Assembly (NCBI GenBank): GCA_029054965.1 | Contig: JAIDEF010000015.1 | Location: forward strand, 1 to 11,838 | Origin: Eubacterium sp. | GTDB lineage: Bacteria; Bacillota; Clostridia; Oscillospirales; Acutalibacteraceae | DNA: 11,838 nucleotides | Reading direction: 5' to 3' | Shown: in pieces, positions 903-11,838 of the stretch | Numbering within the stretch: position 1 is the first letter of the stretch | How the letters are laid out: each line of letters opens with the position of its first letter | Position numbers and translations under genes: made by a program | The notes under the pieces: model-generated | What the model was told of the DNA's origin: nothing | What the model saw: only the letters and a program-made list of their open reading frames with translations | The model's database searches: none

Positions 903-942
903 AAAAAAACGATGCGGTTCACATTGAACTGCATCGTTTTTT
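903..942. terminator. Bidirectional intrinsic terminator between membrane protein gene and porB
   Basis: A 12-bp stem (910-921 with 925-936, one G-U pair) closes a 3-base loop. It has a T run at 937-942 on the plus strand and an A run at 903-909 that serves as the T run on the minus strand. It lies between two convergent genes and should end both transcripts. Confidence 0.9.
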
Positions 943-953
943 ACTTTAATTAA

Positions 954-1895
954 TTATGCACCGCGTACTTCGTCACATCTGTTGAGAAGCTCATACCAAC
1001 GGCGGTCGACCTCTTTCTGGAATGACTCAATCATCCACTCATTGCCGGGCTTGAACATATGCTTGAATCTGCCCTGCTTAACAAGCCACTCCTCAATCGG
1101 AACATAGCTCTTTGGCTGGTAGTTTAAAATCCATCTGCCGTCAACAACCTCAAACAACGGCCAGTAGCGTGTTTCAACTGCAAGCTTGCAGATTTCCATA
1201 ATATCATATGTCGGATATCTCCAGCCCCTCGGACACGGTGCCATAATATTTAAGAAAGCAGCACCCTTTGTATAAATTGCTCTTTCGCTCTTTTTATACA
1301 AGTCCTTAAAATTCTGTACAAATGTAGTCTGTGCAACATAAGGCACCTGATGCTCTGCAATGATTGCAGCAAGGTCCTTTCTGTACTGTGGCTTACCTAA
1401 CGACTCTCTGCCGACAGGAGTAGTTGTTGTATCGGCGAACATAGGTGTCGCTGATGAACGCTGAATACCTGTATTCATATAAGCACCGTTATCGTAGCAA
1501 ACATAAACCATATCGTGATTACGCTCCATTGCACCTGAAAGTGACTGGAAACCGATATCATATGTACCGCCGTCACCACCGAAGGTAATGAACTTATAGG
1601 TTTCGTCAAGCTTACCTTTTCTTCTGAGAGCGTTATATGCACCCTCAACACCTGACATTGTTGCACCTGCATTTTCAAATGCATTATGAATATAGCTGTC
1701 CTTATAAGCGGTATAAGGATACATAAAGGTTGAAACCTCAAGACAGCCTGTAGCATTGCCTACAACAGCCTTATCCCCCGGCTTGATAGCCTTTAAAACA
1801 TTTCTTACGGCAATTGTGCCGCCGCAGCCTGCACACATTCTGTGACCACCGACAAGGCGGTCTTCTCTTGAAACATATTCTTTAAAATTATACAT
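954..1895 (-). CDS. porB: 2-oxoacid (pyruvate):ferredoxin oxidoreductase, beta subunit
   Basis: This is the thiamine-diphosphate-binding catalytic subunit of a four-subunit 2-oxoacid:ferredoxin oxidoreductase. The complex interconverts a 2-oxoacid plus CoA and the acyl-CoA plus CO2 with reduced ferredoxin, in the cytoplasm. Its 313 residues fit the family. The CAGC motif gives Cys21 and Cys24; Cys51 (NATGCLEV) and Cys221 (APCPRGW) complete the set expected to bind the subunit's [4Fe-4S] cluster. The ThDP/Mg motif starts at GDGG (107-110) and runs to the DNGAYMNTG segment (135-143). Similarity to the pyruvate-type PorB is clear. It is the last gene of the operon, 14 bases after porA, with AGGAGG at 1905-1910. 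A strong terminator follows. Confidence 0.93.
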   Translation of the reverse strand: MYNFKEYVSREDRLVGGHRMCAGCGGTIAVRNVLKAIKPGDKAVVGNATGCLEVSTFMYPYTAYKDSYIHNAFENAGATMSGVEGAYNALRRKGKLDETYKFITFGGDGGTYDIGFQSLSGAMERNHDMVYVCYDNGAYMNTGIQRSSATPMFADTTTTPVGRESLGKPQYRKDLAAIIAEHQVPYVAQTTFVQNFKDLYKKSERAIYTKGAAFLNIMAPCPRGWRYPTYDIMEICKLAVETRYWPLFEVVDGRWILNYQPKSYVPIEEWLVKQGRFKHMFKPGNEWMIESFQKEVDRRWYELLNRCDEVRGA

Positions 1896-1909: not shown

Positions 1910-3091
1910 TTATTCTCTTACGCCCATATAACGATATGGATTTTCAACCTTGCCTGCCTCTGCAGTCTTAACAAGCTCTTCGTATACCTCAACCATATCA
2001 CTGACCTTAACATCACGTCCGCCAAGACCGTAAACATAGTTGACTGCCAGAGCATTTGAGCCTGCTCTGTAAAGGGCGGTTGTAACCTCTGAGCCGATTG
2101 GTCCGCAATTATCGTTATAAGCCTCTGTTCTGTCCATAAGTGCAACAGCTTTAATATTCTTTAAGCTCTCAGCAATTTCTTCTGCAGGGAAGGGTCTGAA
2201 CAATCTGATTTTTATTAAGCCTGCCTTGACGCCCTTTTCTCTCAGCTCATCAACAGCATCCTTTGCTGTACCTGCTGCTGAGCCGATAATTACAACAGCA
2301 TATTCGGCATCGTTCATCTTATATTCTTCAAAGAGTCCGTACTCTCTGCCTGAGATTTTTGCATATTCCTTGGCAACATCAAGTGTAACCTGCTTTGCAT
2401 TTTTTAGTGCCTCAGCCTGTGCTCTCTTAGCCTCAAAGTAGTAGTTGGTTACACTGTAAGGACCTACTGCCATAGGGCATTCTGGGTTAAGGAGTGAATT
2501 TTCAGGATTATACTCACCAACAAAATTCTTAACATCCTCATCCTCATTAAGAACAATATTTTCAACAGCGTGTGAGGTTATGAAACCATCCTGGCAAATC
2601 ATAACAGGAAGCATAACATCCTTATGCTCTGCAATACGATAAGCCATACAAAGGTTATCATAAACCTCCTGATTATTCTCGGCATAAATCTGAATCCATC
2701 CGGAATCCCTTGCACCCATTGAATCACTATGGTCGCAGTTGATATTGATAGGACCCGATAAAGCTCTGTTAACAAGGGTCAATACGCAAGGCAGTCTGTT
2801 TGATGCTGCAAGATAAAGCTCCTCCCACATAAGGGCCATACCTGCTGACGAGGTAGCTGTAACACTTCTTGCACCTGCTGACTGAGAACCGATAACAGCG
2901 GACATAGCTGAATGCTCACTTTCAACAGGAATAAACTCACTGTCAACCTGTCCGTTAGCAACGAGCTTTGAAAAATATTGAGGAATTTCAGTTGAAGGAG
3001 TAATGGGGAAAGCCGCCATTACATCAGGATTTATCTGGCGTAAAGCCTCGGCAACGGCTTCATTACCGCTTAATCTGTCTTTTCTTGCCAT
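1910..3091 (-). CDS. porA: 2-oxoacid (pyruvate):ferredoxin oxidoreductase, alpha subunit
   Basis: This is the alpha subunit, which packs against PorB to form the active site; its 393 residues are normal length. Landmarks in order are an N-terminal pyrimidine-binding-type domain (SGNEAVAEALRQI, then AAFPITPSTEIPQ), the hallmark VESEHSAMSAV, TATSSAGMALM, NRALSGPININCDHSDS and RDSGWIQ. A domain II then ends in IRLFRPFPAEE and YVYGLGGRD. The GPININCDHSD segment matches pyruvate-type PorA better than the 2-oxoisovalerate type, whose equivalent reads differently (from memory of the Pyrococcus VorA). Pyruvate is therefore the best substrate guess, although the T-box leaves a branched-chain 2-oxoacid open. 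It starts two bases after the porD stop and uses a GGAGGGGG ribosome site inside the porD end. Confidence 0.93.
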   Translation of the reverse strand: MARKDRLSGNEAVAEALRQINPDVMAAFPITPSTEIPQYFSKLVANGQVDSEFIPVESEHSAMSAVIGSQSAGARSVTATSSAGMALMWEELYLAASNRLPCVLTLVNRALSGPININCDHSDSMGARDSGWIQIYAENNQEVYDNLCMAYRIAEHKDVMLPVMICQDGFITSHAVENIVLNEDEDVKNFVGEYNPENSLLNPECPMAVGPYSVTNYYFEAKRAQAEALKNAKQVTLDVAKEYAKISGREYGLFEEYKMNDAEYAVVIIGSAAGTAKDAVDELREKGVKAGLIKIRLFRPFPAEEIAESLKNIKAVALMDRTEAYNDNCGPIGSEVTTALYRAGSNALAVNYVYGLGGRDVKVSDMVEVYEELVKTAEAGKVENPYRYMGVRE

Positions 3092-3093
3092 AA

Positions 3094-3396
3094 TTACTTT
3101 ACCCCCTCCATTGTGATTGCACCTAAATGACAGCTTTTAACACATATACCGCAGCCCTTGCAGTGATCATAATCAATTTCGCTTCTTTTGCCGTCAACAA
3201 CAGCAATACAGCTATCAGGGCAAACAGGCACGCACATTAAGCAGTGAATGCATTTTTCGTTATCAACAACAGGCTGAACTGATGTCCACTCACCTGTATT
3301 AAACTCAAGTGAGGTAGCCTCACCATAAATCTGCATACCCTCGGTTAAATCCTGCCATGAGCAGTCGAGGTGTAATTTATTCAAATCTGATTTCAT
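3094..3396 (-). CDS. porD: 2-oxoacid (pyruvate):ferredoxin oxidoreductase, delta (ferredoxin-like) subunit
   Basis: This 100-residue subunit carries two [4Fe-4S] clusters that relay electrons from the ThDP site of PorB to external ferredoxin. Cluster motif 1 is C49-x2-C52-x2-C55-x3-C59-P. Motif 2 is C79-x2-C82-x2-C85-x3-C89, followed by His90 where Pro is usual. The N-terminal extension (SWQDLTEGMQIYGEATSLEFNTGEW) matches the PorD family and not a free ferredoxin. The ATG directly abuts the porC stop, and its ribosome site AGGAGG (3405-3410) is encoded by the last codons of porC, so translation is probably coupled. Confidence 0.93.
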   Translation of the reverse strand: MKSDLNKLHLDCSWQDLTEGMQIYGEATSLEFNTGEWTSVQPVVDNEKCIHCLMCVPVCPDSCIAVVDGKRSEIDYDHCKGCGICVKSCHLGAITMEGVK

Positions 3397-3969
3397 TTAT
3401 CTTACCTCCTCAAAAGCCATATTAAGCGCATTCATATTGCCCTCGATAACCTCAGGCTTTGATGCGAACTTATGAGAAAATGAATTTTCCATTTCCTTTA
3501 AGAAAATCTCTTTTTCCATAACACCTGAAACCTTAACAATAGCAGCAAGCATAGGAGTATTCGGGAAATATTTACCAAGGCAGGCCTTTGAAACCTTTCT
3601 TGCATCAATTGTATAAACCTTACCTGCATAGCCGTTAAGCTTTTCTCTGATTTCATCAGGTGACTTTGATGTATTAACAACAATACCGCCGTCAGCCTTA
3701 AGACCGTCAGTTACGTGAACTACATCAAGAAGTCCCTCGTCAACAACTACAACATAATCAGGCTCATAGATATTTGAATGAACTCTGATTTCGCTTTCGC
3801 TGATTCTGTTATATGCAGTAATCGGAGCACCCATACGCTCAGGACCGTACTCAGGAAAGCCCTGCACAAAGCTACCTGTTTTGAAGGCAACGTCTGCCAG
3901 CAGCAAGGCGGCTGTTTTAGCACCCTGACCACCGCGGCCGTGCCAACGGATTTCTACTAAATCTGCCAT
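3397..3969 (-). CDS. porC: 2-oxoacid (pyruvate):ferredoxin oxidoreductase, gamma subunit
   Basis: This is the gamma subunit, which contacts CoA and stabilises the complex. The family signature RWHGRGGQGAKTAA sits at residues 8-21, followed by FPEYGPERMGAPITAYNRIS and an NTPMLAAIVKVSG segment near the C-terminus. I start it at the ATG 3967-3969 (MADLVEIRW, 190 residues) because GGGAGGA lies just upstream and the family normally begins here. The frame is open further upstream, but that would run back through the T-box terminator and is not credible. It is the first gene of the porC-D-A-B operon, the same order as the Thermotoga four-subunit enzyme. Expression should depend on read-through at the T-box. 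Confidence 0.92.
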   Translation of the reverse strand: MADLVEIRWHGRGGQGAKTAALLLADVAFKTGSFVQGFPEYGPERMGAPITAYNRISESEIRVHSNIYEPDYVVVVDEGLLDVVHVTDGLKADGGIVVNTSKSPDEIREKLNGYAGKVYTIDARKVSKACLGKYFPNTPMLAAIVKVSGVMEKEIFLKEMENSFSHKFASKPEVIEGNMNALNMAFEEVR

Positions 3970-3985
3970 AATAATCCTCCCAAAT

Positions 3986-4023
3986 AAAAAAATAAAAGCC
4001 TCTCTGCCCAAAGGCAAAGAGGC
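3986..4023 (-). terminator. T-box intrinsic terminator (regulated)
   Basis: An 11-bp stem (4023-4013 pairing with 4008-3998, one U-G pair) and short loop are followed by a U-rich tract at 3997-3986. The 5' arm overlaps CUCUUU (4021-4016), which can instead pair with AAAGAG (4051-4046) in the antiterminator. The two forms are mutually exclusive, as T-box control requires. The porC ribosome site follows immediately. Confidence 0.92.
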
Positions 4024-4246
4024 GATAATTAATACCGTGGTACCACTCTTTTTCGTTAAAAAACGCACTTAATGTACTATCATACACTATCCGTATAACG
4101 GCGGCGACCGTCTGCACCTACTGCCCTTCAGCACAGCCACTCAAGGAGGATACCCCACTTAACATTGTACCGACTCACACCAACCGTCGGCTCTCTTAAA
4201 CAACTACATAAATGAAACTTGTTCCCATCAACGTGTTTTATTTATT
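4016..4246 (-). promoter_or_regulatory. T-box riboswitch leader of the por operon
   Basis: The leader RNA senses uncharged tRNA and stops the terminator from forming. The T-box core reads AGUGGUACCACGGUA (4047-4033). Stem I starts near 4235 with the GAUGGGAACAAG block typical of T-box 5' arms. It continues with helix 4214-4209/4161-4156, helix 4204-4200/4168-4164, the AGAGAG bulge (4196-4191) and a distal hairpin with stem 4190-4186/4174-4170 and loop GGUUGGUGUGA. The UGGU bulge (4045-4042) implies a tRNA ending ACCA, discriminator A. The specifier lies on the 3' side of the loop at 4155-4145. By analogy with the glyQS spacing to the GAG motif, AUC (4151-4149, Ile) fits, but GUA (Val) and CUC (Leu) overlap it and are not excluded. 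The riboswitch call is firm; its amino acid is not. Confidence 0.93.
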
Positions 4247-4252
4247 GCAACA

Positions 4253-4281
4253 ATTATATTACAGGAAAAACCATTTGTCAA
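4253..4281 (-). promoter_or_regulatory. Promoter of the T-box/por operon
   Basis: TTGACA (4281-4276), a 17-bp spacer and TATAAT (4258-4253) match the sigma-A consensus perfectly. Transcription should start near 4246, just before stem I of the T-box. Such a strong promoter fits a system controlled mainly by attenuation. The -35 lies only eight bases beyond the stop codon of the HMA gene. Confidence 0.9.
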
Positions 4282-4288
4282 CAACTTT

Positions 4289-4543
4289 TTACTTTTTTAG
4301 CTTAGAAAAAAATCCCTTTTTCTCGTACGGCTCTTTAGTTATTGATTTAAGGTCATAGCCTGTTTCAGCAACAACAGACTTCAGCTTCTCTTCATCAAGC
4401 TCTTCTGCAACAATAACACACTGCTTTTTTGTATGAGAGGATTCAACCTTTTTGACAGAAAAATGATTTCTGACCGCATCATTCATATGAGCCTCACAGT
4501 GACCGCACATCATACCTTCAATTTTCAGAATATATTTAGTCAT
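4289..4543 (-). CDS. Heavy-metal-associated (HMA) domain protein, CopZ-like
   Basis: This 84-residue cytosolic protein has the HMA fold. The metal-binding loop GMMCGHC occupies residues 10-16, with Cys13 and Cys16 as the predicted Cu(I) ligands. It is followed by EAHMNDAVRNHF and a second half ending ETGYDL. The last 15 or so residues form a Lys/Phe-rich tail (EKKGFFSKLKK) beyond the usual domain end. Family knowledge suggests a copper chaperone or metal buffer. No copper ATPase or CsoR/CopY regulator is adjacent, so the metal is inferred. The ATG at 4541-4543 has AAGGAGT about eight bases upstream. No terminator is visible before the downstream por promoter, so some read-through into the T-box is possible. 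Confidence 0.85.
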   Translation of the reverse strand: MTKYILKIEGMMCGHCEAHMNDAVRNHFSVKKVESSHTKKQCVIVAEELDEEKLKSVVAETGYDLKSITKEPYEKKGFFSKLKK

Positions 4544-4689: not shown

Positions 4690-4726
4690 AAAGATATGCT
4701 ATGACTAACTACTCAGGAGATTTGCT

Positions 4727-7264
4727 ATGAAAAAAACATTAAACGGAAAATGGTATTTTAAAGAGGTCGGTACACAATACTGGTATGATGCAACTGTACC
4801 CGGCTGCAACTTTTTGGATTTGATGTCAAATGGTAAAATTCCCGACCCTTTCATTGGTCTGAATGAAGCTAAGGTTGCTTGGGTTGGCGAAAAGGACTGG
4901 GAGTATAAAAAAACTTTTATAATAAGAGAAAAAGCTGTAAATTACAGCGATATTCTTTTGAACTGTAAAATGCTTGACACAATATGCGATGTATTAATTA
5001 ACGACAAGCTGCTCTTTAAAGGCAGCAATTGCTTTAAAGAATACAGCTACTCAATTAAAGATTTTGTTGAAGTCGGTGAAAATGAGCTTCGTATCATCTT
5101 TCACTCACCTGTAAACTACGTAAGCAGAAAATATGAGCAATCCCCCACTCCTGTAAATTCAAACGGTCAGAACGGAATTGTACATATCAGAAAACCTCAA
5201 TGCCATTTTGGCTGGGACTGGGGACCTGTTCTGCCCTGCAGCGGCATTACAAGGGACATTGAGCTTGAATTTGTAGAGGACGGAAGAATCAACTATCTAT
5301 CAGTAACTCAGAATCACAGCGACAATGTTACAATCAGCGTTAATGCTGATTTGACATTATATAATAAAGACGCAGAATGCTTTATCACCCTTGAAACTCC
5401 TGACGGCGAAATTTTCCAGCACTGGGGAAACAGTTGTGATTTTGTTATTGAAAATCCTAAGCTGTGGTGGACAAAAGAGCTTTCAGGCAGTGACGAGCAG
5501 CCGTTATATACAGTGAAAGCAGTAATTTTTAATAACGGAAAGGAAATCTGCTGGGAGGAAAAGAAAATCGGCTTAAGAACCATTGAGCTTAACCGTGAAC
5601 GTGATGAATACGGACAGAATTTCCAGTTCAGATTAAACGGTGTACCACTCTTTATCAAGGGTGCAAACTATATACCTCCTGACAGCTTTATAACACGCTT
5701 CAGAGCTAAAGAACTTAACCATCTGCTGGATGCCGTACAATTTTCAAATATAAATATGCTGCGCATATGGGGCGGTGGATACTATGAAAGTGACAGCTTT
5801 TATGAAGCATGCGATAAAAGAGGTATTCTCGTATGGCAGGATTTCCAGTTTGCCTGTCAGGCATATCCGTTCTTTGACAACGAGTTTTTAGACAACGTCA
5901 AGGAAGAAGTTGAAAGCAACGTAAAAAGACTTTGTCACCATCCTTCACTGGCTGTATGGTGCGGTAACAATGAAATTGAAGATATGCATATGTCCTGGGT
6001 ACATATGACGAAATATGTGGACTGGACAGAAAAATTCTTTTATAACATTCTTGAGCCTGAAATCAGAAAATATGATAAACAAACCCCATATACGCAGGGC
6101 TCTCCAATCGGAATTTCACACAATAAGGGTGTAAGCTCTGACAATGTCGGCGATACTCACCTTTGGGGAGTATGGCACGGACTTAAACCAATGGATTATT
6201 ACCGCAAGCGTATGACACGCTTCTGCAGCGAATTTGGTTTTGAAAGTCTGCCTGATATCAAGGCGATTGAAAGATATGCGCAGCCGTCAGACTACAATCT
6301 CGGCAGTGATGTTTTCAAAGCACATCAAAAATGTGCAAGCGGTAATGACAAAATGGTTTACTACATTGCATCACGATTTAACCTGCCGAAAAGATTTGAA
6401 GATTACATTTACCTTTCACAGGTAACACAAAATGAATGTATTGCAGATGCAACAGAGCATTGGAGAAGAAATAAGGGCAGATGCAACGGATCAATGTACT
6501 GGCAGTTCAATGACTGCTGGGGTGTATGCTCATGGTCAAGTATTGACTACTATGGCAACTACAAGGCACTGCAATACGGCGCAAAACACTTTAATGCTCC
6601 CCTTTCCGTTTCTGTTGAAGATACAGAGGAATATATTAAAATATTTGTGCTTAACGACCTTAACAGCAAACAGTCAGTTGAAGCCGAATATATAATTTTT
6701 GACTTTGAAAAAGGTACTCTTGAAAAACACAGAACTGCCGTAGATATAAATGCACTCGAAAACAGACTGCTGTTTGAGCTTGATATCAATGAAATAAAAA
6801 GAGTTCACGATTACAGAAAAACAGGAATCTGTGCACGGCTTTATCAGAACGGAGAACAAATTAATCAGAAGGTTGTTCTTTTTGACAATGAAAAAAATCT
6901 CAGACTGCCGAAAGCAAAGCTTAAAACAAGAATTACAATTGAAGAAAAGCAATTAAGATTAACAATTAAAAGCGATAACTTTGCAAGACTTGTTAAGGCA
7001 GAAAGCAGCAGATCATCAAATCCGTTCAGTGATAATTTCTTTGATATACTTCCAAATGAAACAAAGGAAATTACTATTGCAGCAGATAAAGCAATGAGGA
7101 TAAGAGAATTAGCTGAAAGCATCAGAGTTTATAGCTTAAGTGATATTAAATTTGATTACTGCAAGCTCAATTCAATAAAGAACCAGCTCAAGGTTTACCT
7201 TTCACCTGTTAATATCGGAAATGCGGTTTACCACGGCAAGCTTTCAAAGGATGTTAAATTCTAA
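4727..7264 (+). CDS. Beta-mannosidase, glycoside hydrolase family 2
   Basis: This 845-residue enzyme removes terminal beta-D-mannose from manno-oligosaccharides (EC 3.2.1.25). The layout is a jelly-roll sugar-binding domain (about 1-170, ending near the mannosidase hallmark FGWDWGP), an Ig-like domain (about 180-290), a TIM barrel (about 295-620) and C-terminal beta domains. Barrel landmarks are KGANYIPPDSF, MLRIWGGGYYESDSFYEACDKRG, VWQDFQFACQAYP and WQFNDCWGVCSWSSIDYYG. The predicted acid/base is Glu416 (WCGNNEIE) and the nucleophile Glu502 (FCSEFGFES). No signal peptide or membrane segment is visible, so it should act in the cytoplasm on imported oligomers. It stands alone, with its own promoter and a shared terminator; no transporter or other glycosidase is nearby. 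Length and motifs are normal for the family. Confidence 0.95.
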   Translation: MKKTLNGKWYFKEVGTQYWYDATVPGCNFLDLMSNGKIPDPFIGLNEAKVAWVGEKDWEYKKTFIIREKAVNYSDILLNCKMLDTICDVLINDKLLFKGSNCFKEYSYSIKDFVEVGENELRIIFHSPVNYVSRKYEQSPTPVNSNGQNGIVHIRKPQCHFGWDWGPVLPCSGITRDIELEFVEDGRINYLSVTQNHSDNVTISVNADLTLYNKDAECFITLETPDGEIFQHWGNSCDFVIENPKLWWTKELSGSDEQPLYTVKAVIFNNGKEICWEEKKIGLRTIELNRERDEYGQNFQFRLNGVPLFIKGANYIPPDSFITRFRAKELNHLLDAVQFSNINMLRIWGGGYYESDSFYEACDKRGILVWQDFQFACQAYPFFDNEFLDNVKEEVESNVKRLCHHPSLAVWCGNNEIEDMHMSWVHMTKYVDWTEKFFYNILEPEIRKYDKQTPYTQGSPIGISHNKGVSSDNVGDTHLWGVWHGLKPMDYYRKRMTRFCSEFGFESLPDIKAIERYAQPSDYNLGSDVFKAHQKCASGNDKMVYYIASRFNLPKRFEDYIYLSQVTQNECIADATEHWRRNKGRCNGSMYWQFNDCWGVCSWSSIDYYGNYKALQYGAKHFNAPLSVSVEDTEEYIKIFVLNDLNSKQSVEAEYIIFDFEKGTLEKHRTAVDINALENRLLFELDINEIKRVHDYRKTGICARLYQNGEQINQKVVLFDNEKNLRLPKAKLKTRITIEEKQLRLTIKSDNFARLVKAESSRSSNPFSDNFFDILPNETKEITIAADKAMRIRELAESIRVYSLSDIKFDYCKLNSIKNQLKVYLSPVNIGNAVYHGKLSKDVKF

Positions 7265-7272
7265 ATAGCAAC

Positions 7273-7305
7273 AAAAAAACACTTCCCTATCGGGAAGTGT
7301 TTTTT
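7273..7305. terminator. Bidirectional terminator between beta-mannosidase gene and groEL
   Basis: A perfect 9-bp stem (7279-7287 with 7292-7300) encloses the loop TATC. It is flanked by an A run (7273-7279) and a T run (7300-7305), so it can end transcripts from both directions. It separates two convergent genes. Confidence 0.92.
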
Positions 7306-7330
7306 AATTATATGTTATATGTTGTATTTA

Positions 7331-8974
<1,644 letters not shown>

Positions 8975-8992
8975 TCAAATTTTCCTTTCTGA

Positions 8993-9265
8993 TTATTCAA
9001 CAACTGCAAGAATGTCACTTACAGAAATAATAGTGTATTCCACACCGTCAACCTTAACCTCAGTGCCTGAGTATTTGCTTGTAATAACCTTATCGCCTGC
9101 TTTAACAGTCATTGGATTTTCCTCAGTACCGGGTCCTACTGCAACGACCTCGCTCATTTCAGGCTTTTCCTGTGCAGACGCAGCAAGAATAAGTCCGCTC
9201 TTTGTTGTTTCCTCAGCCTCAAAGGATTTAAGCAAAACCTTATCTGCCAATGGTTTAATATTCAT
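8993..9265 (-). CDS. groES: Co-chaperonin GroES (10 kDa)
   Basis: This is the seven-fold lid of the GroEL chamber, 90 residues from the ATG at 9263-9265 (MNIKPLADKVLLK). I prefer this start because it matches the family N-terminus and has AGAGGTG just upstream. An upstream in-frame start at 9298 would add 11 residues not seen in GroES. The mobile loop that contacts GroEL is ETTKSGLILAASAQEKP (about 19-35), followed by VVAVGPG and GDKVITSKYSGTEVKVDGVEY. It is the first gene of the groESL operon and is controlled by CIRCE. Confidence 0.97.
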   Translation of the reverse strand: MNIKPLADKVLLKSFEAEETTKSGLILAASAQEKPEMSEVVAVGPGTEENPMTVKAGDKVITSKYSGTEVKVDGVEYTIISVSDILAVVE

Positions 9266-9301
9266 AATATCACCTCTAAAAATATTTTGCGTTTTCACTA
9301 G

Positions 9302-9328
9302 TTAGCACTCAGGCACATCGAGTGCTAA
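9302..9328. promoter_or_regulatory. CIRCE element (HrcA operator)
   Basis: TTAGCACTC (9302-9310), nine bases, then GAGTGCTAA (9320-9328) is a perfect match to the CIRCE consensus. It lies just downstream of the -10 box, where HrcA binding represses groESL until heat or protein-folding stress frees the site. hrcA itself is not in this window. Confidence 0.98.
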
Positions 9329-9336
9329 CAATTACT

Positions 9337-9364
9337 ATTTTAGCAATATTTTTCCATTTGTCAA
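9337..9364 (-). promoter_or_regulatory. groESL promoter
   Basis: TTGACA (9364-9359), a 16-bp spacer and TAAAAT (9342-9337) form a sigma-A promoter placed so that transcription starts at or just before the CIRCE element. Confidence 0.85.
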
Positions 9365-9382
9365 GAGTATTAACAGAATATT

Positions 9383-9432
9383 CAAAAAATATAGCCTGCT
9401 TATACTAATGTATTGAATAAACAGGCTATATT
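9383..9432 (-). terminator. Terminator of the rqcH-ispD-ispF-radical SAM operon
   Basis: An 11-bp inverted repeat (9388-9398 with 9422-9432) is separated by 23 bases that can form a small inner hairpin (9402-9405 with 9410-9413). On the minus strand a T run (9389-9384) follows the stem. It lies 16 bases after the radical SAM stop and before the groESL promoter. Confidence 0.75.
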
Positions 9433-9447
9433 ATGAATTAAATATAA

Positions 9448-10323
9448 TTATAATTCCCATAGACTCAATTGCTTCGACAACTGCTTTTCCTCAAAGGTAT
9501 GCAAGTATTCAAATATCAAATCGTTATTATGAACAATACCATGCTCATCACATTTGTCATTAAACTGCTTCATAAGAGTGTTATTATTGAAACTATTGAT
9601 TACATACCGGTTGCCATATATTTTTATATATTTTTCTTTTAAACCGGGAAAATGCTTATCAAGCTGATTATAAAAATACTCCCTGTTCCTGTCACGAAGT
9701 GTTACACCCATACCGAAGCATATAATACCATAAACCTTTGCCTCAATACACATATCAAGAATTGCAGAAATATTCTCCCAAGTATCATTTATAAAAGGTA
9801 AAATCGGTGAAAGCCATACAACGGTTGGGATTCCTGCATCACGCATTTGTTTAAGGACCTCAAATCGTTCTTTGGATGTTGAAACATTCGGTTCAATTTT
9901 TCTGCACAATTCCTCATCAGCAGTTGTCAGGGTCATCTGAACAACACACTTTGTTTTTTCATTAATTTTCTGCAGCAAATCAATATCACGCAGAATACGG
10001 TTTGATTTTGTAATGACTGTAAAACCAAAGCCATTTTCATAAATTAATGATAAAGCTTTTCGCACATTCTGCAATTCCATTTCAAGCGGAATATAGGGAT
10101 CTGTCATAGAGCCTGTGCCTATCATACACTTTTTGCGCTTGTGCTTGAGCGTATTTTCAAGCAGTTCAACAGCATTTTCCTTAATCTCAATATCTTCAAA
10201 ATCATGCTGCATATTGTAGCACTTGCTTCTTGAGTCGCAGTATATACATCCGTGAGAACATCCACGGTACAAATTCATACCGTTTTTCGGTGATAAAATT
10301 CCCTTTGCTTTAACATAATGCAT
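9448..10323 (-). CDS. SPL-family (SplB-like) radical SAM protein
   Basis: This protein of about 291 residues belongs to the radical SAM superfamily, in the group related to spore photoproduct lyase (COG1533 type). The [4Fe-4S]/SAM motif is NLYRGCSHGCIYC, with Cys22, Cys26 and Cys29 in CxxxCxxC spacing. GTGSMTDPYIPLE and FTVITKSNRI follow, both typical of the group. It is shorter than true spore photoproduct lyases; most proteins of this kind have no proven substrate, so I give no gene symbol. I chose the ATG at 10321-10323 because AGGGAA (10336-10331) lies seven bases upstream. A GTG at 10341 overlapping the ispF stop would add six residues but lacks a ribosome site. It is the last gene of the operon. 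Confidence 0.85.
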   Translation of the reverse strand: MHYVKAKGILSPKNGMNLYRGCSHGCIYCDSRSKCYNMQHDFEDIEIKENAVELLENTLKHKRKKCMIGTGSMTDPYIPLEMELQNVRKALSLIYENGFGFTVITKSNRILRDIDLLQKINEKTKCVVQMTLTTADEELCRKIEPNVSTSKERFEVLKQMRDAGIPTVVWLSPILPFINDTWENISAILDMCIEAKVYGIICFGMGVTLRDRNREYFYNQLDKHFPGLKEKYIKIYGNRYVINSFNNNTLMKQFNDKCDEHGIVHNNDLIFEYLHTFEEKQLSKQLSLWEL

Positions 10324-10337
10324 ACAATAATTCCCTG

Positions 10338-10805
10338 TCACTCAATAAGACAGACAGCATGGGCAGCAATACCCTGTTTTGCTCCTGTAAAGCCAAGACC
10401 CTCTTCGGTTGTTGCTTTCACGGAAACACAGTCGGAATCAACATTGCAAACATTTGCAATGTTACATCTCATATCATAAATATGGGGTGCCATTTTAGGT
10501 GCCTGAGCAAGGATTGTGGAGTCAATATTTATTATTTTATATCCTTTTTCATTAACCTGTCTTACAACCTCTTTTAAAAGCTCAAGACTGTCTGCACCCT
10601 TCCACTTGTCATCGGTGTCAGGGAAAAGGTGACCGATGTCACCCATAGCAGCAGCACCGAGTATTGCATCACTTACAGCGTGCAAAAGCACATCAGCATC
10701 ACTGTGACCAAGTAAACCGACAGGACTTGGAATATCAACACCGCCGATAATACACTTTCTGCCTTCAACTAATTTATGAACATCATAGCCGTGACCGATT
10801 CTCAT
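10338..10805 (-). CDS. ispF: 2-C-methyl-D-erythritol 2,4-cyclodiphosphate synthase
   Basis: IspF is the cyclising step of the MEP isoprenoid pathway; it releases CMP and forms MEcPP. The 155 residues start [12 protein letters not shown]. The zinc ligands Asp8, His10 and His42 are present ([14 protein letters not shown], 33-46). [20 protein letters not shown]-type (here [13 protein letters not shown]) and [12 protein letters not shown] motifs follow, all diagnostic. The ATG overlaps the ispD stop by one base (TAATG), so the two genes are translationally coupled. The stop lies just before the radical SAM start. Confidence 0.97.
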
Positions 10806-11482
10806 TACTGCTCACCTCTCATTTTCAGCACACCCTCTGCCATAGGCAAATCCTCAGGTGTAGTAATCTTAATATTACCGTAGTCACCGATAACTGTGAA
10901 TACAGGCTTTCCGAAATACTCAATCAACTGGCAGTCATCCGTAAAATCCATACCATCTGCTTTGGCTTTTTTAACTGCATCAGTATACAGCTTAAAATCA
11001 AAAATCTGCGGAGTTCTTATGGATACCAGTGTCGACCTGTCAGGTGTTGAAACAATCTGATTATTACCGTCTACAACCTTGATTGTATCCTTCACCATAA
11101 CACCGACAGCAGCAGCACCATTCTGAACAGCACTTGCAAGAGTATCTTTTATCTCTTTTTCAGTAATAAGCGGTCTTGCCCCGTCATGTATTAACAAATA
11201 ATCACATTCGTCGATTGTTTCAACCGCATTCATAACACTTTGCTGACGTGTATCACCGCCAAAGCAATACGAAACATCATATGCTGAAAGTACATTTTCA
11301 AAGCTATCAAGATCACATTCACGGCAAACAACAATAATTTCACTAATTTCTTTTATTTTTGAAAAGGTTTCAACCGTTCGCTCTAAAACAGTTTTTCCGT
11401 TTATATCAAGAAGCAACTTACTTTTGTCTGCCTTCATTCGTGTGCCTGCACCTGCACCTAAAATAATTGCAGCATTATTCAT
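10805..11482 (-). CDS. ispD: 2-C-methyl-D-erythritol 4-phosphate cytidylyltransferase
   Basis: IspD couples MEP to CTP, giving CDP-ME and pyrophosphate, an early MEP-pathway step. The protein has 225 residues. The nucleotide-binding loop is [19 protein letters not shown]; Arg15 and Lys22 align with the catalytic Arg20 and Lys27 of the E. coli enzyme, although the usual Gln after the lysine is Leu here. HDGARPL, a [14 protein letters not shown] segment, TDDCQLIE and [10 protein letters not shown] follow as expected. I start at ATG 11480-11482, eight bases after GGAGGG; an adjacent GTG at 11485 would add one residue. It overlaps the end of rqcH by eight bases. Confidence 0.95.
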
Positions 11483-11838
11483 CACTCAAGCCCTCCGCTT
11501 CTTCCATAGTCGGTGTAACAAACTCCGTTTTATATGGGTCATAGACCACAAAGCCCGGCTTAGCACCATTTGGCTTTTTAACATTTTTTATCAGCGTATA
11601 ATCAACTGCAACATTTGAGCTTGCTCTTGCTTTGCTGTAATAAGCCGCCAGCACTGCACAATCATGAATAGCTTCATCTGTAATTTCCGCACCTGAGGTT
11701 TCGCAGATAACATGACTGCCTGCGCTGTCCTGAACATGAAACCAGGTGTCATAATTTTTAGCTGTTTTCATGGTCAGTCGGTCATTCATCAGGTTATTCC
11801 TGCCTACCCACACAACAAAACCGTCACGGGTTTTAAAG
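11475..11838 (-). CDS. rqcH: RqcH / NFACT family protein (FbpA-like), C-terminal part (runs off window)
   Basis: Only the last 120 residues are visible; the frame is open to the window edge. The segment reads FKTRDGFVVWVGRNNLMNDR, then LTMKTAKNYDTWFHVQDSAGSHVI, the diagnostic NFACT-R domain. KPNGAKPGFVVYDPYKTEFV and a short acidic end follow. Family members were once called fibronectin-binding proteins; the Bacillus member RqcH binds stalled 60S-like (50S) subunits and directs C-terminal alanine tailing of nascent chains. The N-terminal NFACT-N and coiled-coil parts lie outside. It overlaps ispD and heads the visible part of the operon; the promoter is not in view. Confidence 0.92.
   Translation of the reverse strand, partial: FKTRDGFVVWVGRNNLMNDRLTMKTAKNYDTWFHVQDSAGSHVICETSGAEITDEAIHDCAVLAAYYSKARASSNVAVDYTLIKNVKKPNGAKPGFVVYDPYKTEFVTPTMEEAEGLSDE

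What the first reader, a model, noticed from the sequence alone, without database searches (positions are those of the whole stretch)
3397..4281. T-box riboswitch controls a four-subunit pyruvate-type ferredoxin oxidoreductase operon
Seen: a consensus promoter, full T-box leader, mutually exclusive antiterminator and terminator, then porC-D-A-B. T-boxes usually control tRNA synthetases, amino-acid synthesis or transport, so tRNA-charging control of a POR is striking. Inference: here the enzyme may run as a 2-oxoacid synthase feeding amino-acid synthesis, either making pyruvate for Val/Leu/Ile or carboxylating branched acyl-CoAs. Rumen ruminococci are known to use branched fatty acids to make branched-chain amino acids. 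The alpha subunit itself looks pyruvate-type.
Basis: partly seen in the sequence, partly recalled or inferred. Interest (0 to 1): 0.72.

Follow-up and report, generated by a model that had tools for sequence, protein, structure and literature searches.

The report
Isoleucine tRNA switch controls ketoacid synthase
In many gut bacteria an RNA switch that senses isoleucine-starved tRNA sits in front of an iron-sulphur enzyme usually linked to energy metabolism, which suggests that the enzyme here works in reverse, fixing CO2 to make a precursor of isoleucine.

Summary
A full T-box leader (RF00230, 123 bits, gathering 93) lies at 4240-4015(-), behind a 12-of-12 promoter and ahead of a four-gene operon for the gamma, delta, alpha and beta subunits of a 2-oxoacid:ferredoxin oxidoreductase (POR). 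The specifier reads AUC, isoleucine. It is invariant in 43 of 43 aligned por leaders, as is the UGGU that pairs with the tRNA end, while the flanks vary. The pairing is conserved: 37 of 38 assessable close relatives (alpha at least 83% identical) carry it, and so do five loci of a second clade that also has T-box-free members. A fused PFOR is over cut-off in 22 of 23 T-box-por genomes, with a fragment in the own genome, so this POR is a second enzyme placed under isoleucine control. A por-less congener carries its AUC T-box on a BrnQ-type transporter. Best reading: uncharged tRNA-Ile switches the operon on, and the enzyme carboxylates an acyl-CoA to an isoleucine precursor, most likely 2-oxobutanoate or 3-methyl-2-oxopentanoate. 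Regulation is strongly supported; direction and substrate are inferred. My searches found no paper reporting a T-box on a POR.

The parts
4253..4281 (-). sigma-70 type promoter TTGACA-17-TATAAT
   Evidence: 12 of 12 matches
4015..4240 (-). T-box leader (stem I, stem II/IIA/B, stem III, antiterminator)
   Evidence: RF00230 123 bits, full length
4149..4151 (-). specifier codon AUC (Ile)
   Evidence: register from the alignment; invariant 43/43
4039..4045 (-). T-box bulge UGGUACC; UGGU would pair with a tRNA 3' end ACCA (A73)
   Evidence: UGGU invariant 43/43
4016..4051 (-). antiterminator: helix A1 4051-4046/4021-4016, helix A2 4037-4034/4026-4023
3998..4023 (-). intrinsic terminator, mutually exclusive with the antiterminator
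3397..3969 (-). porC, gamma subunit (TIGR02175, PF01558); RBS GGAGG 3980-3976
3094..3396 (-). porD, delta subunit, 4Fe-4S dicluster (TIGR02179)
1910..3091 (-). porA, alpha subunit (PF01855, PF17147; best NCBIfam PorA_Arch, 490.7 bits, below its 550 cut-off)
954..1895 (-). porB, beta subunit (PF02775; best NCBIfam PRK11865 pyruvate synthase PorB, 335.4 bits, below its 405 cut-off)
904..942 (.). terminator-like inverted repeat after porB, probable end of operon

Best explanation
An isoleucine-specific transcription-attenuating T-box controls a second, biosynthetic 2-oxoacid:ferredoxin oxidoreductase. With charged tRNA-Ile the leader terminates at 4023-3998. When tRNA-Ile is uncharged, its anticodon pairs with AUC (4151-4149) and its 3' ACCA end with UGGU (4045-4042); the antiterminator forms and porCDAB is transcribed. 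The enzyme then runs in the carboxylating direction (acyl-CoA + CO2 + reduced ferredoxin to 2-oxoacid) to supply an isoleucine precursor. Candidates are 2-oxobutanoate from propionyl-CoA (about 0.4), 3-methyl-2-oxopentanoate from 2-methylbutyryl-CoA (about 0.3), or simply pyruvate (about 0.15). Shown here: leader anatomy, codon, conservation, operon, second PFOR. Inferred: tRNA response, direction, substrate.
For: T-box at 123 bits. AUC and UGGU invariant 43/43 while flanks vary. 59 consensus pairs, 41 with at least one compensatory change. T-box motif at por in 42 of 75 assessable loci: 37 of 38 with alpha at least 83% identical plus 5 in a separate clade; the label needs 5 changes on the tree, at least 3 forced. 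Fused PFOR over cut-off in 22 of 23 T-box-por genomes, a fragment in the own genome, so pyruvate oxidation has another enzyme. The same genus puts T-boxes on supply or charging genes with matching codons: leuA CUC, trp UGG, valS GUA, pheST UUC, thrS ACC, cysE-cysS UGC (gene names by my reading of translations), and a por-less congener has an AUC T-box on a BrnQ-type transporter. Closest solved relative is 9BT4, which PMC13156950 calls the archaeal pyruvate synthase (passages). PMC7476758 (passages) reviews propionyl-CoA reductive carboxylation to 2-ketobutyrate in anaerobes.
Against: IlvA is over cut-off in 23 of 23 T-box-por genomes, ilvC in 22 of 23 and ilvD in 20 of 23, so the threonine route to Ile looks present and a POR route is not strictly needed. 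No methylmalonyl-CoA mutase (0 of 28), so no succinate route to propionyl-CoA; no butyrate kinase over cut-off (0 of 28). Acids would have to be activated otherwise (not tested). In G247, which lacks a T-box at por, ilvA lies about 620 nt upstream of por on the same strand, as a catabolic threonine-to-propionate route would also have it. 33 of 75 assessable loci have no T-box motif. The base after the codon is C in 32 of 43, where a purine is usual. The alpha looks pyruvate-type. The tRNA-Ile gene was not found by pattern (0 of 4 genomes), so its discriminator base was not checked.
Confidence: 0.62

Rival explanations
1. The POR is a pyruvate synthase (acetyl-CoA + CO2) that tops up pyruvate for isoleucine and general biosynthesis; isoleucine charging is only a proxy for amino-acid hunger.
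For: Alpha and beta score best against pyruvate synthase families; the residues for pyruvate carboxylate and Asn996 are kept; nearest solved structure is an archaeal pyruvate synthase.
Against: Specifier is AUC in all 43 leaders, not Val, Leu or Ala; a fused PFOR is present as well; sugar fermenters rarely lack pyruvate (general knowledge).
Confidence: 0.15
2. The POR oxidises 2-oxoacids (pyruvate, 2-oxobutanoate) and the T-box was recruited for another reason, for example to balance reduced ferredoxin when growth slows on isoleucine starvation.
For: OFORs are reversible and many are catabolic (general knowledge). In G247 ilvA is near por. Many T-box-free relatives exist (33 of 75 assessable loci).
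Against: Burning 2-oxobutanoate when isoleucine is short would be counter-productive; the other T-box targets that I read in the genus are supply or charging genes; fused PFOR already present.
Confidence: 0.15
3. The codon is misread and the leader senses another tRNA, e.g. Gly (GGU before A) or Val (GUA).
For: In the window GGU-A and GUA-U overlap the same stretch, and GGU-A would restore the purine after the codon.
Against: Only AUC is invariant (43/43); the bases that would make GGU or GUA vary. UGGU implies discriminator A; tRNA-Gly usually has U73 (recalled).
Confidence: 0.03

Closest known systems
T-box riboswitch, RF00230 (transcriptional class; synthetase, biosynthesis and transporter leaders)
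   Same: Stem I with specifier loop and AGAGA/GGUG apical motif, stem II S-turn (GAA/AGUA), CGUUA, UGGUACC bulge, antiterminator against terminator.
   Different: Target gene: a ferredoxin oxidoreductase, not a synthetase, textbook amino-acid pathway gene or transporter. Base 3' of the specifier is C in 32 of 43, where a purine is usual (PMC7583486 passages).
Four-subunit pyruvate synthase PorCDAB (archaeal type, PDB 9BT4)
   Same: Four separate subunits, POR_N/PFOR_II alpha, TPP-binding beta, dicluster delta, conserved YPITP-type motif (here FPITP).
   Different: Bacterial; below the curated cut-offs of the pyruvate synthase models (490.7 of 550 alpha, 335.4 of 405 beta); under predicted tRNA-Ile control; coexists with a fused PFOR.
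2-ketobutyrate:ferredoxin oxidoreductase activity (propionate to isoleucine in anaerobes; Buchanan 1969, Sauer 1975, as cited in PMC7476758)
   Same: Would explain why a POR is controlled by isoleucine.
   Different: That is an activity reported in other anaerobes; here only genes and regulation are seen, no activity.
Isoleucine from 2-methylbutyrate in rumen bacteria (Robinson and Allison 1969, as cited in PMC7356843)
   Same: Anaerobic gut bacteria; reductive carboxylation to the 2-oxoacid of Ile.
   Different: Substrate not shown here; no ptb-buk type activation found (butyrate kinase 0 of 28 over cut-off).
iorAB-paaK operon of Geobacter, listed under tryptophan biosynthesis (PMC2700814, passages)
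   Same: An OFOR gene set treated as biosynthetic, with a conserved sequence upstream.
   Different: Different OFOR (indolepyruvate type); that paper names the leuA leader, not the iorAB one, as a T-box.

Membership tests
T-box leader (RF00230) | covariance-model match over the gathering score, full length | tested here: met
   123 bits, 1-219/219
T-box leader (RF00230) | UGGN-ACC bulge in an antiterminator | tested here: met
   4045-4039; invariant UGGU 43/43; pairs conserved. The isolated hairpin is no more stable than shuffles (50 of 200 as stable)
T-box leader (RF00230) | competing intrinsic terminator | tested here: met
T-box leader (RF00230) | specifier codon in the stem I loop naming an amino acid | tested here: met
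   AUC
T-box leader (RF00230) | purine 3' of the specifier | tested here: not met
   C in the window and in 32 of 43; A in 10, G in 1. A preference, not an absolute requirement: leuA T-boxes of the genus have CUC-U
T-box leader (RF00230) | read-through in response to uncharged cognate tRNA | not testable with these tools
   needs RNA experiments
T-box leader (RF00230) | target gene linked to the sensed amino acid | tested here: inconclusive
   POR not in the textbook Ile pathway; link inferred
Four-subunit 2-oxoacid:ferredoxin oxidoreductase (POR/VOR type) | gamma, delta, alpha, beta subunits with TIGR02175, TIGR02179, PF01855, PF02775 | tested here: met
   over cut-off
Four-subunit 2-oxoacid:ferredoxin oxidoreductase (POR/VOR type) | carboxylate-binding Thr and Arg, and Asn of PFOR (Thr31, Arg114, Asn996) | tested here: met
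   my reading of the alignments; residues named in PMC5020499 (passages)
Pyruvate synthase equivalogs (NF040682, NF008819) | score above the curated cut-off | tested here: not met
   490.7 of 550 and 335.4 of 405 bits
2-ketoisovalerate oxidoreductase equivalog (NF006232) | score above the curated cut-off | tested here: not met
   337.1 of 646 bits
2-oxobutanoate or 3-methyl-2-oxopentanoate synthase | carboxylation of propionyl-CoA or 2-methylbutyryl-CoA | not testable with these tools
   needs an enzyme assay

The most novel reading that the evidence does not exclude
The AUC T-box marks, at gene level, the enzyme of ferredoxin-dependent reductive carboxylation to isoleucine (propionyl-CoA to 2-oxobutanoate, or 2-methylbutyryl-CoA to 3-methyl-2-oxopentanoate), an activity described in anaerobes since 1969. 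At least two lineages of gut Clostridia have put a CO2-fixing iron-sulphur enzyme under direct tRNA-charging control, so that scavenged short-chain fatty acids replace threonine when isoleucine runs out.
Probability: 0.5. Interest if true: 0.72.

Novelty: new member of a known kind. Interest (0 to 1): 0.56.

Why it matters
The RNA is a textbook T-box, but its target is not. Control by isoleucine charging gives an independent, conserved clue to the physiological role of an OFOR, a family whose direction and substrate are hard to read from sequence. It gives a gene candidate for a long-known activity (fatty acid to isoleucine by reductive carboxylation), testable in one enzyme assay and one labelling experiment, and bears on how gut anaerobes recycle propionate and branched fatty acids.

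Tried and rejected
Auxotrophy explanation: rejected for the clade. If ilvA, cimA, ilvC and ilvD were missing, the POR would be the only route to Ile. ilvA is over cut-off in 23 of 23 T-box-por genomes, ilvC in 22 of 23 and ilvD in 20 of 23 (G300 has a partial ilvD under cut-off, G311 and the own genome none). cimA is over cut-off in 0 of 23; it is over cut-off in 3 of the 50 genomes searched. ilvB and ilvE were not searched. The own genome has neither ilvC nor ilvD, but it is 92.7% complete in 421 contigs and its near relative G300 (alpha 98%) has ilvC, so I do not read a loss from it.

Gene-neighbour clues: I saw no conserved neighbour of the T-box-bearing por operons that names the substrate (a GroEL gene is in 21 loci, as in the window). 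An AGCS-type transporter gene is in 11 of the 88 loci clustered, mostly T-box-free por loci but also L195, a T-box locus, about 4 kb off; glycine riboswitches lie ahead of it at L062 and L078. Not taken as evidence.

Endogenous propionyl-CoA by methylmalonyl-CoA mutase: 0 of 28 genomes. Butyrate kinase: 0 of 28 over cut-off, only weak partial matches in 26.

tRNA-Ile in the genomes by pattern: 0 of 4. The pattern was too strict or the gene is missing from the assemblies; the discriminator base of the cognate tRNA was therefore not checked.

Glycine or valine reading of the specifier: rejected on the alignment.

Literature: Vitreschak 2008 and Gutierrez-Preciado 2009, the main T-box surveys, are not held. 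Searches listed no title or abstract that links a T-box to an OFOR (one search showed 20 of 28 papers, 10 of 189, one search found none). Passages only were seen: PMC5171806, PMC9045289, PMC5640608 and PMC2700814, PMC2940859 mention both subjects without linking them; PMC2494555, PMC3766115, PMC7778990 and PMC11477304 have 0 occurrences of 'ferredoxin' and of 'oxidoreductase' in the main text. Supplements could not be opened, so an entry in a database or supplementary table is not excluded.

Full report
WHAT IS THERE. On the minus strand, a promoter with all 12 consensus positions (4281-4253) is followed by a T-box leader that matches RF00230 over its full length (4240-4015, 123 bits, gathering 93). 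Then come a terminator (4023-3998), a ribosome-binding site (GGAGG, 3980-3976) and four tightly packed genes: gamma 3969-3397, delta 3396-3094, alpha 3091-1910, beta 1895-954. Family scans identify them as PorC/KorC-type gamma, PorD/KorD-type delta, a POR_N/PFOR_II alpha and a TPP-binding beta. A terminator-like repeat at 904-942 probably closes the operon.

THE SWITCH. The 5' arm of the terminator shares bases with the 3' arm of the antiterminator, so the two cannot coexist. The terminator alone folds at -21.7 kcal/mol (0 of 200 shuffles as stable); the isolated antiterminator stretch is no more stable than its shuffles (-6.7 kcal/mol, 50 of 200 as stable), which is compatible with a need for tRNA to hold it. 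I aligned the window leader with 42 relatives, all loci with the motif. The consensus fold has 59 pairs, 41 of them with at least one compensatory change. The named antiterminator pairs in 97.9% of cells (sliding the partner gives 44-59%), the terminator in 99.6% (slid 39-58%). Shuffle controls overstate this for related sequences; the slide control does not, though the structures came partly from these sequences.

THE CODON. The Rfam alignment puts AUC (4151-4149) at the specifier place, one base before the lower stem I helix. TBDB states a rule of the same form, positions 2-4 from the end of the loop (a passage cut off in the output, PMC7778990). In 43 of 43 leaders AUC is invariant while each of the six bases before it varies, and the base after it is C in 32, A in 10, G in 1. 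UGGU, which would pair with a tRNA ending in ACCA, is invariant 43 of 43. The own genome's other four T-boxes read sensibly by the same register: UUC (gene beyond the contig end), CUC (leuA), AAC (aspS), UGG with UGGC (trpB). In the congener G021, GUA is on valS, UUC on pheST, AAC on aspS, UGC on cysE-cysS, ACC on thrS, CUC on leuA, UGG on trpE (gene names by my reading of the translations, not by family scan). So the por leader should sense isoleucine. The cognate tRNA itself was not found with my pattern (0 of 4 genomes).

HOW WIDESPREAD. The T-box core motif lies upstream of por in 42 of 80, or 42 of the 75 with at least 1.2 kb upstream. Among the 39 loci with alpha at least 83% identical it is 37 of 38 assessable; L025 lacks it (Rfam too) and L038 is cut off. 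A separate clade contributes L045, L048, L061, L076 and L077; it also has members without the motif. On a protein tree the label needs 5 changes, at least 3 forced by well-supported branches, with the five unassessable loci counted as lacking it. Rfam at gathering level confirmed 7 of 8 motif-positive loci tried (L076 did not reach it) and the por T-box in 12 of 12 motif-positive genomes. It found no T-box in 13 of 13 motif-negative loci. In the window's family, an alpha with at least 58% identity occurs in 5 of 300 sampled genomes: the own one, G149, G021, G152 and G247. The last two have no T-box near por.

WHY A SECOND POR. The fused one-chain PFOR is over its cut-off in 30 of 31 genomes searched, and in 22 of 23 with the T-box por (two of these are partial at contig ends); the own genome has a fragment at a contig end (C290, 299.9 bits, under cut-off). 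Pyruvate oxidation in fermentation therefore has its own enzyme, and the T-box enzyme is an addition. The por-less congener G293 has an AUC T-box upstream of a BrnQ-type transporter (L175), as if the isoleucine signal goes to whichever supply gene is at hand. G231 has neither this por nor an AUC T-box among its six.

PATHWAY CONTEXT. The threonine route looks present: ilvA 23 of 23, ilvC 22 of 23, ilvD 20 of 23 over cut-off (ilvB and ilvE not searched). Citramalate synthase is over cut-off in 0 of 23 (only in G002, G007 and G030 of 50, and G007 and G030 are the two genomes without ilvA over cut-off). ilvC in G021, G293 and G307 has no T-box near it. The POR route is thus an addition that could spare threonine, not the only route. 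Methylmalonyl-CoA mutase is absent (0 of 28) and butyrate kinase not over cut-off (0 of 28), so propionyl-CoA or 2-methylbutyryl-CoA would come from acids taken up and activated by acetate kinase/phosphotransacetylase, a CoA transferase or a ligase. I did not test these. In G247 an ilvA gene lies 619 nt upstream of a T-box-free por, which also fits threonine breakdown.

WHAT THE ENZYME MAKES. Alpha and beta score best against pyruvate synthase models but under their cut-offs, and higher than against 2-ketoisovalerate models. By alignment to D. africanus PFOR the carboxylate-binding Thr31 and Arg114 and Asn996 are kept; around the methyl pocket Leu121 is Ile, Ile843 is Val and Ala219 is Tyr. 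9BT4 has Ile, Val and Phe there (my reading, taking chain index + 1 as the paper's numbering; residue list from passages of PMC5020499). PMC13156950 calls 9BT4 the archaeal pyruvate synthase (passages). This fits a small substrate, pyruvate or 2-oxobutanoate, somewhat better than a branched one, but does not decide. PMC7476758 (passages) lists propionyl-CoA reductive carboxylation among known routes to 2-ketobutyrate, citing Buchanan 1969, Monticello 1984, Eikmanns 1983 and Sauer 1975, and warns that formate-lyase chemistry may explain some cases. PMC7356843 (passages) cites Robinson and Allison 1969 for isoleucine from 2-methylbutyrate. PMC2700814 (passages) lists a Geobacter OFOR operon, iorAB-paaK, under tryptophan biosynthesis with a conserved upstream sequence, a precedent for an OFOR used in biosynthesis but not for a T-box on one.

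VERDICT. A T-box of the ordinary kind on an unusual and conserved target. Regulation by isoleucine: very likely. Carboxylating, isoleucine-supplying role: likely. Exact substrate: open. The searches and the passages read showed no report of it, but the main T-box surveys and databases could not be read.

Noticed in passing
4151-4148: The base 3' of the specifier is C in 32 of 43 por leaders, where a purine is the rule (PMC7583486 passages); leuA T-boxes of the genus have U there. The clade may tolerate pyrimidines at this place.
   Followed up: partly
window 4543-4289: A small HMA-domain (CopZ-like) gene ends 7 nt before the -35 box of the por promoter, on the same strand, with no predicted terminator between; read-through into the T-box leader is possible.
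   Followed up: no
G000 (own genome): No ilvC or ilvD match in the own 92.7% complete genome, though leuA with a Leu T-box is present and the near relative G300 has ilvC; incompleteness or true loss not resolved.
   Followed up: partly
L175 (G293:C2:117645-117884): In a por-less congener an AUC T-box precedes a BrnQ-type branched-chain amino-acid transporter gene (named by my reading of the translation).
   Followed up: partly
L189 (G247), 4725-5918 and 6538-9567: Threonine ammonia-lyase gene 619 nt upstream of a T-box-free por operon on the same strand.
   Followed up: partly
L187 (G293) 2745-4327 and L191 (G307) 13256-14858: ilvA is followed directly by a RidA-like gene (by my reading of the translation) in both genomes.
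   Followed up: no
L014 / G021: Public record titled Bacteroides sp. carries this Clostridia-type locus; its genome (G304) gives the same ilvC contig coordinates as G021, same genus as the window: the title looks like a mislabel.
   Followed up: no
L062 7695-7789, L078 9062-9152: Glycine riboswitch ahead of an AGCS-type transporter gene downstream of T-box-free por operons.
   Followed up: no
window 4727-11837: Rest of the window: GH2 family glycosidase resembling beta-mannosidase (4727-7264 +), groEL- and groES-like genes (8971-7331, 9298-8993 -), PA0069-like radical SAM (10341-9448 -), ispF- and ispD-like genes (10805-10338, 11485-10805 -), NFACT-R domain fragment (11837-11475 -). Domains of the first, the radical SAM and the last; the others by my reading.
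   Followed up: no
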